Part shown: positions 41,554 through 47,688 of the stretch, piece after piece
How the letters are laid out: each line of letters starts with the position of its first letter
How positions within the stretch are numbered: the first letter of the stretch is position 1
Made by a program: the position numbers and the translations under genes
Source: Roseovarius sp.
GTDB lineage: Bacteria; Pseudomonadota; Alphaproteobacteria; Rhodobacterales; Rhodobacteraceae
Length of the DNA stretch: 64,000 nt
NCBI RefSeq assembly: GCF_027019125.1
Contig: NZ_JALUXE010000030.1
Location: forward strand, 434,001 to 498,000
Direction: 5' to 3'
Notes under the pieces: model-generated
The model's database searches: none
Told to the model about the DNA's origin: nothing
The model's input: the letters and a program-made list of their open reading frames with translations, nothing else

Positions 41554-42519
41554 ATGGTGCAGGATGTAACGCTCGTGGCCGCAGGCCTCGTGTTGTTGTT
41601 CGTGGGTGGGGAGGCGCTGGTGCGGGGCGCTGTGGCCATGGCCGAGCGGATGGGCGTGTCCAAGCTCTTGATCGGGTTGGTCATCGTGGGCTTTGGCACC
41701 TCCACGCCCGAATTGTTGGTGTCAGTCAATGCCGCGCTGGACGGGGCCTCGGAGATCGCCCTTGGCAATGTCGTGGGGTCGAACATCGCCAATATCCTGC
41801 TCATCCTCGGTTTGGCGGCGGTGATTGCACCGATCATGGGCTGGGCCCGCACGGCGGTGCGCGAGGCCTTGGTGGCGACGCTGGTCAGTCTTGTGGCCTT
41901 TGCACTGGTGCAGGGCGCGGTGATCAGCCGGATGGAAGGGATCGCCATGTTGCTGGTCATGGTCGGCTATCTGGTTTCGAGCTATTGGCTGGAACGGCGT
42001 GACCGCACGGCACAAACCTTTCAGCATGAGGCGGAAGCGTTTGAGGGGCTGCCCGCCGCCCGGCCCTGGTTGCCGCCGCTCTTGGCCCTGGGGGGTATTG
42101 CGGCGCTGGTGTGTGGTGCCGACCTGCTGGTTGAGGGGGCGGTGAACATCGCGCGCGTCTTTGGCGTGCCCGATGCGGTGATCGGGCTGTCGCTGGTCGC
42201 GGTCGGCACATCCTTGCCGGAACTGGCGACCTCTATCGTCGCTGCGATTCGGCGGCAATCCGATGTGGTGCTGGGCAATGTGATCGGCTCGAATATCTTT
42301 AACATCCTGGCCATTCTGGGGGTGACGGTGGTGATCCAACCCATCGAGGTCAGCGCGCGGTTCCGCGAGATCGACACGCCGGTGATGCTGGCGGCGGCGC
42401 TCTTGCTCCTGGCGTTGCTCTTTGCCACGCGCGGGATTGGCCGGGTCTGGGGGGCCGCGATGCTGGCGATCTATGCGGCCTATATGGTGGTTCTCTTTGC
42501 CGGCGGCATGGTCGCCTGA
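41554..42519 (+). CDS. CaCA-family calcium/sodium exchanger (YrbG type)
   Basis: 321 residues, ten predicted membrane helices made of two inverted repeats. Each repeat carries the alpha motif: GFGTSTPELLVSVNA ... GNVVGSNIANI in the first and AVGTSLPELATSIVA ... GNVIGSNIFNI in the second, which bind Na+ and Ca2+. A short loop around residue 150-160 (QTFQHEAEAFEGLP) divides the halves. Ion specificity is inferred from the family. No clear neighbour partnership except the ion-transport genes that follow. Confidence 0.9.
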   Translation: MVQDVTLVAAGLVLLFVGGEALVRGAVAMAERMGVSKLLIGLVIVGFGTSTPELLVSVNAALDGASEIALGNVVGSNIANILLILGLAAVIAPIMGWARTAVREALVATLVSLVAFALVQGAVISRMEGIAMLLVMVGYLVSSYWLERRDRTAQTFQHEAEAFEGLPAARPWLPPLLALGGIAALVCGADLLVEGAVNIARVFGVPDAVIGLSLVAVGTSLPELATSIVAAIRRQSDVVLGNVIGSNIFNILAILGVTVVIQPIEVSARFREIDTPVMLAAALLLLALLFATRGIGRVWGAAMLAIYAAYMVVLFAGGMVA

Positions 42520-42604
42520 GCCGCGCGCGCATCCCGGCGAAAACCTGCCCCGTGATGGGCAAGCTTCGATTCCCAATTCCTGAAATTCCAGCTATTTCAG
42601 GGAT

Positions 42605-45121
42605 ATGGATATTGTTCTTGTCACGACGATCATTGCGTCGCTCTTTCTGGTGATTGCGGCCGCCGATCCTTTGGCGGCGCGTCTGCGGCTGCCCTACAGC
42701 GTGATCCTCGCCTGTCTGGGGATGCTGATCGGGGTGGGGGCGATCTTTTTCCTGCGCACCGAGTTGACCGATGCGCTCAATCCGGTGGCCGAGGCCATTC
42801 TGGGGCTGCCGATCCGGTCGAACGTGTTTCTTTACGTCTTTCTGCCAACGCTGCTCTTTCAGGTCACGCTTGGGGTCAACCCGCGCAGGATGATGGACGA
42901 CTGGGTGCCAATTCTGGTGTTGGCGGTGGTGGCAGTCGTGGTGGCGACGCTGGCGGTGGGCTATGCCTTGGCCTGGGCCAGTGCGCTGCCTCTGGTGGCC
43001 TGCCTGCTGATCGGCGCGATTGTCAGCACGACGGACCCATCGGCGGTGGTGGGGATTTTCCGCTCGATTTCGGCACCGCGCCGGTTGTCGCGGATCATCG
43101 AGGGCGAGAGCCTCTTGAATGACGCGGCGGCCATCGCGCTCTTTGGTCTCTTCATGGCGTTCGTGATGTTGGGGGTTCCGGATCCGAGTTTTCAGGACGC
43201 CCTCGCGCAGTTTCCGGTGCTGATCGCAGGTGGGGCGGTGGCGGGCTGGCTGATCGCGCGGATCGCCGTGTGGCTGATGGCGCTGATGGCGCGCTACGAG
43301 CTGGCGGTGATCTCGGTCTCGGTCGCGTTGCCCTATCTCGCCTATATCGGTGCGGAACAGAGCATCGGGGCCTCGGGTGTGATCGCGGTCGTCGCGGCGG
43401 GGCTCACACTGAACCTCACGGGGCCTGCGCGATTGCCGCCGCTGATCTGGACCAACCTGCGCGAGGTCTGGGATTTGCTGGCGCATTGGGCGGGGGCGCT
43501 CATCTTTATCCTTGCCGCGCTCCTGATCCCGCGCCTGCTGGAGGAGGTGCGGGCAGGGGATTTCGTGCTGATCCTTGTGGTCATCGCGGCGGCCATCGCG
43601 GCGCGGGCGGTGATCCTCTTTGGTCTCATGCCGGTGCTGAGCCTTCTGCGGCTCTCTCCGGTGGTGGAGCGGCCTTATCGTGTGGCGATCCTCTGGGGGG
43701 GATTGCGCGGGGCGGTCACGCTGGCGCTTGCCCTTGCCGTGACCGAGAGTTTCCGGGTGCCGGTCGAGGTCAAGCGGCTGGTGGGTATTCTGGCCACCGG
43801 CTTCACGCTGTTCACGCTGCTCGTGCAGGGCACGACGCTCAGGTGGGTGATCGGGCGGCTGGGGCTTGATCGGCTCTCGCCACTGGATCAGGCGTTGAGC
43901 AATCAGGTGATCGCCGTGGCGCTTCAGACCGTGCGCGCGGATGTGGCGCGCACCGCCGAGAACTATGAGTTGACGCGTGAAACGGTGCGTTCGGAGGCCA
44001 AGCGCTTTGCCGAGCGGCTGGACCGGGCGGTCGAGACCGCCGAAGAAGGGGCCGAGATACAGGACCGCGACCGTATCACGCTGGGGCTGATCGCGCTTGC
44101 GGGGGCGGAGCGCGATACGATCCTCGCACGGTTTCGCGAACAGGCGATTTCGGCGCGGTTGTCGGAACAGATCCTGACCGAGGCGGATCGTCTGATCGAG
44201 GCGACCCGCTCGGGGGGGCGCACCGGCTATCAGCGTGCGGCGCGGCGCAGTCTGCGGTTTGGGCGGGCCTTTCGCTTTGCCGTGCTGCTGAACAATCGGT
44301 TGCGGATTTCGCGGCCCCTCGCCTTGATGACGGCAGACCGGTTCGAGGTGCTGTTGTCGCAGCGCCTGATCCTGCGCGATCTGAGCGGGTTCATCGACGG
44401 GCGTATCCGGCGCATCCATGGCAAGCGGGTGGCCGACCTCCTGCACGAGTTGCTGGCGCGGCGGCAAGAGGCGGTGGAAACCGCACTTGAGGGGCTGCGC
44501 CTGCAATATCCCGGCTATGCCGAGGAACTGGAGCGCCGGTTCATCCGCCGCACCGCGCTGCGGCTGGAAGAGCGCGAATATGGCATGTTGCGTGAGGATG
44601 GGCTGATCGGCGCGGAACTGCACGTGGCCTTGATGCAGGATATTGCCACGCGCCGCCTGCGCGAGGAACAACGCCCCAAGCTGGACGTGGCCGTGCAAAA
44701 GGCCGAACTGGTGCGGCAATTCCCGCTCTTTGCCGATCTCGACGAGCGCAGTTTGCGGCAACTGACGCGCGCGCTGCGCACGCGCTATGTCAACGAGGGC
44801 GATGTGATCCTGCGCAAGGATACGCCCGCGCGGCGCGTGTTCTTTATCGCCTCTGGCGCCGTGGAACTGGCGGTTGCGGGGCAGACATGGCGTTTGGGAC
44901 GGGGCGAGATGTTTGGCCAGATGGCCATCCTGATGCAGAAACCGCGCCGCACGGCGGCAACGGCAATCTCCTCCTCGACCTTGCTGGTGCTGGACGAGGC
45001 GCGGTTTCGGCGATTGCTCAGGCGCAGCGCGGGGTTGCAAGAGGCGGTGCGTCAAAGCGCCAAGGCGCGCGGGGTCAAGACCGACGCCTTCACCATTCCG
45101 GAGTTGATCGAACAGGACTGA
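42605..45121 (+). CDS. CPA1 Na+/H+ antiporter fused to a cyclic-nucleotide-binding domain
   Basis: 838 residues. About 1-410: NhaP/CPA1 transport domain with twelve or so helices and the ion-site region STTDPSAVVGIF ... EGESLLNDAAAIALF. About 420-690: a long, charged, helical cytoplasmic segment. About 700-825: a cNMP-binding domain (FPLFADLDERSLRQL, IASGAVELAV, phosphate cassette GEMFGQMAILMQKPRRTAA). The cassette keeps Arg, so it may bind cAMP or cGMP, but this is inferred. The layout recalls SOS1/sperm NHE exchangers gated by nucleotides. Followed by the structured leader of sulP. Confidence 0.88.
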   Translation: MDIVLVTTIIASLFLVIAAADPLAARLRLPYSVILACLGMLIGVGAIFFLRTELTDALNPVAEAILGLPIRSNVFLYVFLPTLLFQVTLGVNPRRMMDDWVPILVLAVVAVVVATLAVGYALAWASALPLVACLLIGAIVSTTDPSAVVGIFRSISAPRRLSRIIEGESLLNDAAAIALFGLFMAFVMLGVPDPSFQDALAQFPVLIAGGAVAGWLIARIAVWLMALMARYELAVISVSVALPYLAYIGAEQSIGASGVIAVVAAGLTLNLTGPARLPPLIWTNLREVWDLLAHWAGALIFILAALLIPRLLEEVRAGDFVLILVVIAAAIAARAVILFGLMPVLSLLRLSPVVERPYRVAILWGGLRGAVTLALALAVTESFRVPVEVKRLVGILATGFTLFTLLVQGTTLRWVIGRLGLDRLSPLDQALSNQVIAVALQTVRADVARTAENYELTRETVRSEAKRFAERLDRAVETAEEGAEIQDRDRITLGLIALAGAERDTILARFREQAISARLSEQILTEADRLIEATRSGGRTGYQRAARRSLRFGRAFRFAVLLNNRLRISRPLALMTADRFEVLLSQRLILRDLSGFIDGRIRRIHGKRVADLLHELLARRQEAVETALEGLRLQYPGYAEELERRFIRRTALRLEEREYGMLREDGLIGAELHVALMQDIATRRLREEQRPKLDVAVQKAELVRQFPLFADLDERSLRQLTRALRTRYVNEGDVILRKDTPARRVFFIASGAVELAVAGQTWRLGRGEMFGQMAILMQKPRRTAATAISSSTLLVLDEARFRRLLRRSAGLQEAVRQSAKARGVKTDAFTIPELIEQD

Positions 45122-45143: not shown

Positions 45144-45313
45144 GCTGCGTTGCAGCGATAAGGGCTTGGCATCCGGAGACGGGTCCGGTAAAGGCCACGG
45201 GTAATCGCATGGACCCCGGGTGCAAGCCCCGGGTGGCTCTTCCGGCCGCTTATCCGCCGGATCATTGAACCCTATCAAGATGCACAATCGGGCCGCGCGT
45301 CGGCTGGCCTGAT
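45144..45313 (+). ncRNA. Structured 5' leader of sulP (candidate riboswitch-like RNA)
   Basis: Nested helices with perfect Watson-Crick arms: GATAAG (45157)/CTTATC (45249), GGCTTG (45163)/CAAGCC (45223), GGGTCC (45181)/GGACCC (45211). A hairpin TCCGGC/GCCGGA (45241-45261) holds CTTATC in its loop, so the outer pair can form a pseudoknot. A GCTGC/GCAGC hairpin precedes it (45144). An 8-pair stem ATCGGGCC/GGCCTGAT (45287-45313), with a G-U valid only on this strand, lies just before the sulP start. Candidate alphaproteobacterial sulfate-transporter leader (such as the sul1 motif), but I cannot confirm the consensus. Confidence 0.6.
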
Positions 45314-45328
45314 CGGGACGGATTTCAC

Positions 45329-46819
45329 ATGATTTCAATAGCTGCCTATCGGGCGCAATGGTTTGGCAATATTCGGGGTGACCTGCTCTCGGGGCTGGTG
45401 GTGGCGCTTGCGTTGATCCCCGAGGCGATTGCCTTTTCGATCATCGCGGGCGTGGATCCCAAGGTGGGGCTTTATGCCTCGTTCTCGATTGCCGTGCTCA
45501 CGGCGATCACCGGCGGGCGGCCCGGCATGATCTCGGCGGCGACGGCGGCGACAGCGGTGCTGATGGTGACGCTGGTCCGGGATTACGGGCTGGAATATCT
45601 CTTGGCGGCGACGGTGCTGGCGGGGCTGATCCAGATCGGGATGGGGCTGTTGCGGCTGGGGTTCGTGATGCGCTATGTGTCGAAATCGGTGATGACCGGG
45701 TTCGTCAACGCGCTGGCCATTCTGATATTCATGGCGCAATTGCCGGAACTTGATCCAAGGTCGGTGCCGTGGATCACCTATCCGCTGGTCGCGGCGGGAC
45801 TGGGGATCATTTATCTCTTTCCGCTTGTGACCAAGGCGGTGCCGTCGCCCTTGGTGACAATCATCGTTCTCACGGCGCTCACGCTGGCGCTTGGCCTGGA
45901 TGTGCGCACGGTGGGCGACATGGGCGCGCTGCCCGACACATTGCCGGTGTTCCTGATCCCCGATATTCCGCTGACGTTTCAAACGCTGATGATCATTCTG
46001 CCCTATTCGGTGGCGGTGGCGGTCGTGGGGCTGCTCGAGAGCCTGATGACCCAGAATATCGTCGATGATCTGACCGACACGAAATCCAGCCGGAGCCAAG
46101 AGATGATCGGGCAGGGGATCGCCAATAGCGCCACCGGATTCATCGGTGGCATGGCGGGCTGTGCGATGATCGGGCAATCGATCATCAACGTCAAATCGGG
46201 TGGGCGCGGGCGGCTGTCGTCCTTTGTGGCCGGTCTGTTCCTGCTGATCCTCGTTGTGGGTCTGGGGGATGTGGTCAGCCTCATTCCGATGGCGGCGCTG
46301 GTAGCGATCATGATCATGGTCTCGATCGGCACGTTTTCCTGGTCCTCGATCAAGAACCTGCGCGAGCATCCGCGCTCGTCCTCGATCGTGATGATCGCGA
46401 CGGTGGTGACGGTGGTCTATACCCACAACCTCGCCATCGGGGTGCTGGTGGGGGTGCTTTTGTCGGGCATCTTCTTTGCCGGCAAGATCGCGCAGTTGTT
46501 CCGCATTACGAGCGTGATCTCCAAGGATGGGCGCGAGCGTATTTACCGGGTCGAAGGACAACTGTTCTATGGGTCGGTCGAAGATTTCATGAATGCCTTT
46601 GATTTCAGGGAGGCGCTTGAGAAAGTGGTGATCGACGTGAGTGCCGCGCATATCTGGGATATTTCATCTGTGCAGGCGCTCGACATGGCGGTTCTGAAAT
46701 TCCGCCGCGACGGGGCCGAGGTGGAAATCCGGGGCATGAACGCCGCGTCGGAGACGCTCGTGGACAAGCTGGCGGAACATCACAAGCCAGGGGCCATCGA
46801 CAAGTTGATGGCGCATTGA
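45329..46819 (+). CDS. SulP-family inorganic anion transporter
   Basis: 496 residues: a membrane domain of about 14 helices with the N-terminal signature [30 protein letters not shown], then a C-terminal STAS domain (about 390-496; [25 protein letters not shown]). SulP proteins move sulfate, bicarbonate or other anions, often with Na+ or H+. The nearby Na+/H+ antiporter and universal stress protein make a Na+-coupled process plausible but not proven. The gene is preceded by a structured leader, and its start is only weakly marked (GGGACGGA), so control of translation is likely. uspA-like gene follows after 14 bases. Confidence 0.9.
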
Positions 46820-46833
46820 GGGAGGAAAGAGAC

Positions 46834-47688
46834 ATGGCGGACAAGATCATCGCGCTGGTCGACGGCTCGATCTATTCGGCCTCGGTTTGCGAACATGCGG
46901 CGTGGATTGCCGCGCGCACCGGCGCGCCGGTGGAGCTATTGCATGTGTTGGGGAGGCGCGAGGGGGCAGAGACCTCTGATCTCTCGGGGTCGATCCGGCT
47001 GGGCGCACGCACGGCGCTGTTGGAAGAGTTGGCAGCGCTCGACGCACAGCGTGCCAAGCTGGTGGCCAACCGGGGGCGGGCCATTCTGGAGGACGCTCTG
47101 GCGCTGGTGGAGGCGGCGGGCGTGACGGAAATCAGCGTGCGGCTGCGTCATGGCGATCTCGTGGAGACGGTGGGCGAGGTCGAGAAGGACGCCCGCGTGA
47201 TCCTGATCGGCAAACGCGGCGAGGCCGCGGATTTTGCCAAGGGGCATCTGGGGTCGAATCTCGAGCGGATCGTGCGTGCCTGTCACAAGCCGGTCGTGGT
47301 CGCGGCCCGCGCCTTTCGGCCCATCGAGAAGGTGTTGCTGGCCTATGACGGGGGCATCTCGGCGATGAAGGCGGTGGATCATATCGCGCGCAGCCCGGTC
47401 CTTGCCGGGCTCAAGGTGCATGTCGTGACCGTGGGCACGGCCACGGCAGAGGTCAGGAAAGGGCTGGAAGATGCCCGCGCCTTGCTCGCTGCGGCGGGAC
47501 TCGCGGTCGAGACCGAGGTCATCGCCGGACAGCCGGAAACCGCGCTTGGCAAGCTGGTGGATGAGGCGGGGTTCGACATGGTGGTGATGGGGGCCTATGG
47601 CCACAGCCGCATCCGTAGCCTCATCATCGGGTCGACCACGACCGAGATGATACGGTCCTGCAAGGTGCCGGTGGTTCTGCTGCGCTGA
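46834..47688 (+). CDS. Tandem-domain universal stress protein
   Basis: 284 residues with two Usp domains (about 1-150 and 151-284). The second keeps the ATP-binding signature GAYGHSRIRSLIIGSTT; the first ends GKRGEAADFAKGHLGSNLERI, a related but weaker version. GGGAGGAAAGAG lies before the ATG at 46834; the track start six codons earlier lacks it. Probably co-transcribed with sulP, as in other bacteria where Usp proteins regulate SulP transporters. Confidence 0.92.
   Translation: MADKIIALVDGSIYSASVCEHAAWIAARTGAPVELLHVLGRREGAETSDLSGSIRLGARTALLEELAALDAQRAKLVANRGRAILEDALALVEAAGVTEISVRLRHGDLVETVGEVEKDARVILIGKRGEAADFAKGHLGSNLERIVRACHKPVVVAARAFRPIEKVLLAYDGGISAMKAVDHIARSPVLAGLKVHVVTVGTATAEVRKGLEDARALLAAAGLAVETEVIAGQPETALGKLVDEAGFDMVVMGAYGHSRIRSLIIGSTTTEMIRSCKVPVVLLR

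What the first reader, a model, noticed from the sequence alone, without database searches (positions are those of the whole stretch)
45144..45313. Pseudoknot-capable structured leader before sulP
Three nested perfect helices, a hairpin whose loop can reach back to close the outer helix, and a second stem just before a weak ribosome site give an aptamer-plus-switch layout in the 207 bases between the antiporter and sulP. One G-U pair is valid only on the + strand. The likely ligand class would be an anion or sulfur signal. It may belong to a known sulfate-transporter leader class or be new.
Basis: partly seen in the sequence, partly recalled or inferred. Interest (0 to 1): 0.7.

Follow-up and report, generated by a model that had tools for sequence, protein, structure and literature searches.

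The report
sul1 RNA leader before sulP

Summary
The leader is real and belongs to a known class. Rfam places sul1 RNA (RF03058, 65.3 bits, cut-off 36.2) at 45208-45266 (+), just before sulP. Its 5' arms (45157-45186) lie in promoter DNA: 118 of 120 related leaders carry a sigma-70-like promoter at a fixed distance before sul1, in the window TTGGCA-17-TAAAGG, so the RNA should start near 45203. Those helices do not exceed shuffles and show no matching change in relatives. The true core is two short hairpins, supported by compensatory changes. Beyond Rfam's 56 positions I found a third helix, P3: the bases just after hairpin 2 pair with the sequence ending at the GGA of the sulP ribosome site (70 of 172 exact complements, 15 expected). 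It suggests control of translation; in the window P3 is weak and G-U-rich. Of 235 sul1 copies, 212 precede sulP. Of 15 readable others above the cut-off, 12 precede genes typical of surface-polysaccharide synthesis or modification. Ligand and direction of control are unknown; I found no paper that gives either.

The parts
45166..45194 (+). promoter of sulP: -35 TTGGCA (45166-45171), 17-base spacer, -10 TAAAGG (45189-45194)
   Evidence: 118 of 120 distinct sul1 leaders have a -35/-10 pair ending 10-20 bases before the GGA of sul1, 20% in shuffles; window distance 16. A strict consensus scan finds no promoter here, so the call rests on position across the family.
45203..45203 (+). predicted transcription start (A), uncertain by about 2 bases
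   Evidence: inference from the -10 position and from conserved bases just before sul1; not measured
45208..45266 (+). sul1 RNA (RF03058), full model 1-56
   Evidence: 65.3 bits, E 1.3e-9, gathering score 36.2; only copy in this genome
45213..45234 (+). hairpin H1 (AC.CCGG ... CCGGGU)
   Evidence: Rfam alignment; each pair formed in 93-100% of 148 distinct sequences, with changes on both sides at four of six pairs
45241..45261 (+). hairpin H2 (UCCGGC/GCCGGA), loop CGCUUAUCC 45247-45255
   Evidence: 97% of cells paired, 4 of 6 pairs with changes on both sides, covariation 0.230 against 0.060 in shuffles, lost when slid by one column
45265..45268 (+). 5' strand of P3 (UUGA)
   Evidence: linker bases 4-7 after H2; family-wide complement at the ribosome site; in the window only U-G, U-G, G-C, A-U
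45313..45316 (+). 3' strand of P3 (UCGG), ending on the first G of GGA
   Evidence: same calls; in the family the helix most often ends on GGA bases 1-3
   Evidence: AUCGGGCC/GGCCUGAU, 8 pairs; linkers of the family fold better than shuffles, -21.2 against -17.5 kcal/mol on average
45316..45322 (+). weak ribosome site GGACGGA
   Evidence: sequence; strong sites (AGGAG, GGAGG or GAGGA) in 1% of sul1-sulP leaders against 16% of other genes
45329..46819 (+). sulP, SLC26/SulP anion transporter with STAS domain, 496 aa
   Evidence: PF00916 and PF01740; nearest solved structure 5da0
46834..47688 (+). universal stress protein gene, downstream of sulP
   Evidence: PF00582; Usp follows sulP in 33 of 91 testable loci

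Best explanation
The region is promoter, sul1 RNA, then sulP. Transcription starts near 45203, so sul1 is the 5' end of the mRNA. Shown by comparison: hairpins H1 and H2 and, across the family, helix P3, in which the bases just after H2 (joined by a near-constant CAA) pair with the sequence ending at the GGA of the ribosome site. Inferred: P3 limits ribosome access, and a signal bound by H1, H2 and the adjoining single strands makes or breaks P3, switching translation of sulP. I lean to an OFF switch, with bound sul1 stabilising P3, because sulP probably encodes an uptake transporter. The direction and the ligand are guesses. In the window P3 is reduced to four pairs, two of them G-U, so control here may be weak.
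For: Rfam match. Compensatory changes in H1 and H2. Fixed promoter distance. P3: tail and ribosome-site segments of one locus pair better than segments from different loci (z -8.6); at least 3 expected pairs in 66% of leaders against 22% of shuffles; exact 4-base complement in 70 of 172 against 15.3 expected, following the tail class (CGCA/TGCG 38 of 46, CCTG/CAGG 8 of 14, CACA/TGTG 5 of 6), with the helix ending on GGA. Weak ribosome sites and no terminator. 212 of 235 copies precede sulP.
Against: No binding or expression data. P3 is not predicted in about a third of leaders and is weak in the window (1.8 expected pairs). Copies before non-sulP genes often stand 200-380 bases from the start codon, where P3 need not apply. 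The cross-locus controls do not fully remove shared ancestry. The strong sequence conservation would also fit a protein-binding site.
Confidence: 0.62

Rival explanations
1. sul1 is a binding site for a protein (or small RNA) that controls sulP translation, not a ligand-sensing riboswitch.
For: Small (56 positions) and very conserved in sequence in stems as well as loops (mean column identity 82%). Nothing here separates protein from ligand binding.
Against: No linked regulator gene was noticed. Spread over several orders with transporter targets is typical of metabolite or ion switches (general knowledge).
Confidence: 0.22
2. One reading: a pseudoknotted leader from 45144 in which upstream arms enclose the hairpins.
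For: The complementary stretches exist.
Against: The 5' arms overlap the promoter; pair counts are within shuffles; no matching in relatives; it excludes H1, which covaries.
Confidence: 0.04
3. The conserved H2 loop AUCC pairs with the GGA(U) of the ribosome site, a pseudoknot that hides it directly.
For: UCC/GGA complementarity in most leaders; in the window the lowest-energy fold pairs AUCCG with CGGAU.
Against: Loop and ribosome site pair hardly better than for other genes (-2.24 against -2.05 kcal/mol), and the variable loop base does not covary with the base after GGAU; own against cross z 0.1, though the near-constant loop gives that test little power.
Confidence: 0.1
4. sul1 is a 5'-end element that affects mRNA stability or transcription elongation rather than translation.
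For: It sits at the predicted 5' end and also precedes surface-polysaccharide-type genes with long leaders, where elongation control is known in other bacteria (general knowledge).
Against: P3 covaries specifically with the ribosome site.
Confidence: 0.12

Closest known systems
sul1 RNA (Rfam RF03058; typed as a riboswitch in Rfam)
   Same: Full-length model match; both hairpins, conserved GGUGGCU after H1, H2 loop CGCYNAUCC, position before sulP, Alphaproteobacteria.
   Different: One inserted C in H1, loop CGCUUAUCC, tail UCAUUG instead of the usual CAAC. The Rfam model stops at 45266, before the P3 partner and the ribosome site.
Twister-sister ribozyme (RF02681)
   Same: Weak overlap at 45181-45262 (19.2 bits).
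   Different: Below its cut-off of 34 bits, E 0.22, with broken pairs and long insertions: a chance match.
Li+-I and Na+-I riboswitches (nhaA-I and DUF1646 motifs; PMC9646797, PMC9337991)
   Same: Small RNAs of similar model length (56 and 53; table in PMC7371854) before ion-transport genes; most Li+ ones are thought to act on the ribosome site (PMC9646797).
   Different: No Rfam match to either in the window; different targets. A likeness of layout only.

Membership tests
sul1 RNA RF03058 | covariance-model score above the gathering score over the full model | tested here: met
   65.3 against 36.2 bits, positions 1-56
sul1 RNA RF03058 | two hairpins kept by compensatory change | tested here: met
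sul1 RNA RF03058 | lies upstream of a SulP transporter gene, same strand | tested here: met
   212 of 235 copies
sul1 RNA RF03058 | occurs in Alphaproteobacteria | tested here: met
   39 of 298 genomes of the same family, 50 of 298 of another order of the class, 0 of 14 control genomes; named loci. One locus (L124) is titled Solirubrobacterales, a metagenome assembly.
riboswitch (functional class) | RNA alone binds a small ligand and changes shape | not testable with these tools
   no binding data; no paper on sul1 function found in the held library
riboswitch (functional class) | expression platform linked to the aptamer | tested here: inconclusive
   P3 joins the sul1 tail to the ribosome site in most leaders; weak in the window
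Twister-sister ribozyme RF02681 | score above gathering | tested here: not met
   19.2 against 34 bits

The most novel reading that the evidence does not exclude
sul1 is a true riboswitch for an unidentified ligand, acting through a sul1-tail/ribosome-site helix that its database model leaves out, and its regulon joins SLC26-type anion transport with surface-polysaccharide O-acylation and sulfation.
Probability: 0.35. Interest if true: 0.72.

Novelty: new member of a known kind. Interest (0 to 1): 0.4.

Why it matters
I could find no known ligand or mechanism for sul1. A predicted 5' end, a helix that can be broken and restored, and a second group of target genes make its function directly testable and argue against assuming that it senses sulfate.

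Tried and rejected
H2 loop/ribosome-site pseudoknot: no covariation, no clear excess over other genes. Pairing of H1 or of the H1-H2 junction with the ribosome site: no locus-specific signal (z -0.4, -1.9). Twister-sister match: below cut-off. Transcription terminator in the leader: none found. Antiporter or sodium link by synteny: 3 of 197 loci. The paper thought to have described sul1 (from memory: Weinberg and colleagues 2017, 10.1093/nar/gkx699) is not held, so whether P3 or polysaccharide targets were reported there is unchecked. One paper mentions sul1 but under RF01070 with a citric-acid-cycle description, apparently a mix-up with another family.

Full report
What is there. A scan of the whole window against Rfam 15 gives three matches above cut-off: two tRNAs and sul1 RNA (RF03058) at 45208-45266 on the + strand, 65.3 bits against a gathering score of 36.2, complete from position 1 to 56. 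It is the only copy in this genome. It lies between an NhaP-like antiporter with a cyclic-nucleotide-binding domain and sulP, an SLC26/SulP transporter with a STAS domain whose nearest solved relative is 5da0, followed by a universal stress protein gene.

The complementary stretches are in the DNA, but their 5' arms run from 45157 to 45186. In 118 of 120 distinct sul1 leaders a -35/-10 pair sits at a nearly constant distance before sul1 (10-20 bases before GGA; 20% in shuffles). TTG and TA were rewarded by that search, so the constancy of position is the evidence, and the same alignment without any motif search shows information at the same positions (same call). In the window the pair is TTGGCA (45166-45171) and TAAAGG (45189-45194), so transcription should start near A45203. 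The strict consensus scan finds no promoter in the window, so this rests on the family. They are also within chance: 476 of 2000 shuffles give as many nested pairs and 157 of 2000 as many helices; in relatives the same segments pair no better within a locus than between loci. The outer helix would also destroy H1.

The proven core. In 148 distinct sequences each pair of hairpin H1 is formed in 93-100% and of H2 in 91-100%, with changes on both sides at several pairs. On a 50-sequence alignment H2 scores 0.230 for covariation against 0.060 in shuffles, and the signal vanishes when the helix is slid by one column.

A helix beyond the Rfam model. The bases following H2 pair with the sequence just before, and running into, the GGA of the ribosome site. 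Three tests agree. Segments of one locus pair better than segments taken from different loci (-6.67 against -5.01 kcal/mol, z -8.6). Leaders hold at least three expected pairs in 66% of cases against 22% of shuffles. The exact complement of linker bases 4-7 is in the ribosome-site window of 70 of 172 distinct leaders, against 15.3 expected from leaders with other tails, and this follows the tail class (CGCA with TGCG, CCTG with CAGG, CACA with TGTG, TCCA with TGGA); the helix most often ends on the GGA itself. Strong ribosome sites are nearly absent before these genes (1% against 16%). I call this helix P3. I could not check whether P3 was reported with the original description, because that paper is not held.

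Targets. Of 235 sul1 loci gathered, 212 have SulP downstream. Of the other 23, five are cut off by contig ends and three are below the cut-off. Of the remaining 15, twelve precede genes of a kind found in surface-polysaccharide synthesis or modification: acyltransferase-3 proteins (L058, L162, L237), a sulfotransferase (L236), SGNH-like proteins without a Pfam match, one of them directly before an MBOAT acyltransferase (L233, L235), methyltransferases (L103, L185), EpsC/CysE-like acetyltransferases (L012, L018, L086) and a glycosyltransferase (L059). One precedes a sodium/proton exchanger (L056) and two are unassigned (L069, L153). All but L059, L069 and L153 were confirmed as sul1 with Rfam's own model. 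The assignment to polysaccharide pathways is by family resemblance; the EpsC/CysE-like scores are below NCBI's cut-offs, L185 was assigned by its likeness to L103, the SGNH label is by eye, and several copies come from the same genomes, so the independent cases are fewer. Distances to the start codon are often 200-380 bases, so regulation there may differ.

How it most likely works. sul1 at the 5' end of the mRNA senses something, and the state of the RNA decides whether P3 holds the ribosome site. Shown by comparison: H1, H2, promoter position, P3 in the family. Inferred: control of translation. Guessed: ligand and direction.

Verdict. A new member of a known orphan class. The interest lies in P3 and in the second target group, which make an open question testable.

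Noticed in passing
L012, L018, L058, L059, L086, L103, L162, L185, L233, L235, L236, L237: sul1 copies not before sulP mostly precede surface-polysaccharide-type genes (acyltransferase-3, sulfotransferase, SGNH-like/MBOAT, methyltransferase, EpsC-like acetyltransferase, glycosyltransferase), in several orders.
   Followed up: partly
L056:1501-1555 (-): A diverged sul1 (43.4 bits) stands before a sodium/proton exchanger gene (PF00999) instead of sulP.
   Followed up: partly
L058: Two sul1 copies 2.35 kb apart in one contig: one before an acyltransferase-3/SGNH gene, the next before sulP-usp; this genome (G092) holds five copies.
   Followed up: partly
L124: sul1-sulP in an assembly titled Solirubrobacterales (Actinomycetota); SulP 62% identical to the window's. 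Misbinned contig or transfer.
   Followed up: no
window 46834-47688: Universal stress protein gene directly after sulP; the pair recurs in 33 of 91 testable sul1-sulP loci.
   Followed up: partly
window 41554-45121: Calcium/sodium exchanger gene followed by an NhaP-like antiporter with a C-terminal cyclic-nucleotide-binding domain.
   Followed up: no
literature, PMC10636060: That paper names sul1 RNA with accession RF01070 and a citric-acid-cycle description, apparently a mix-up of two Rfam families.
   Followed up: no
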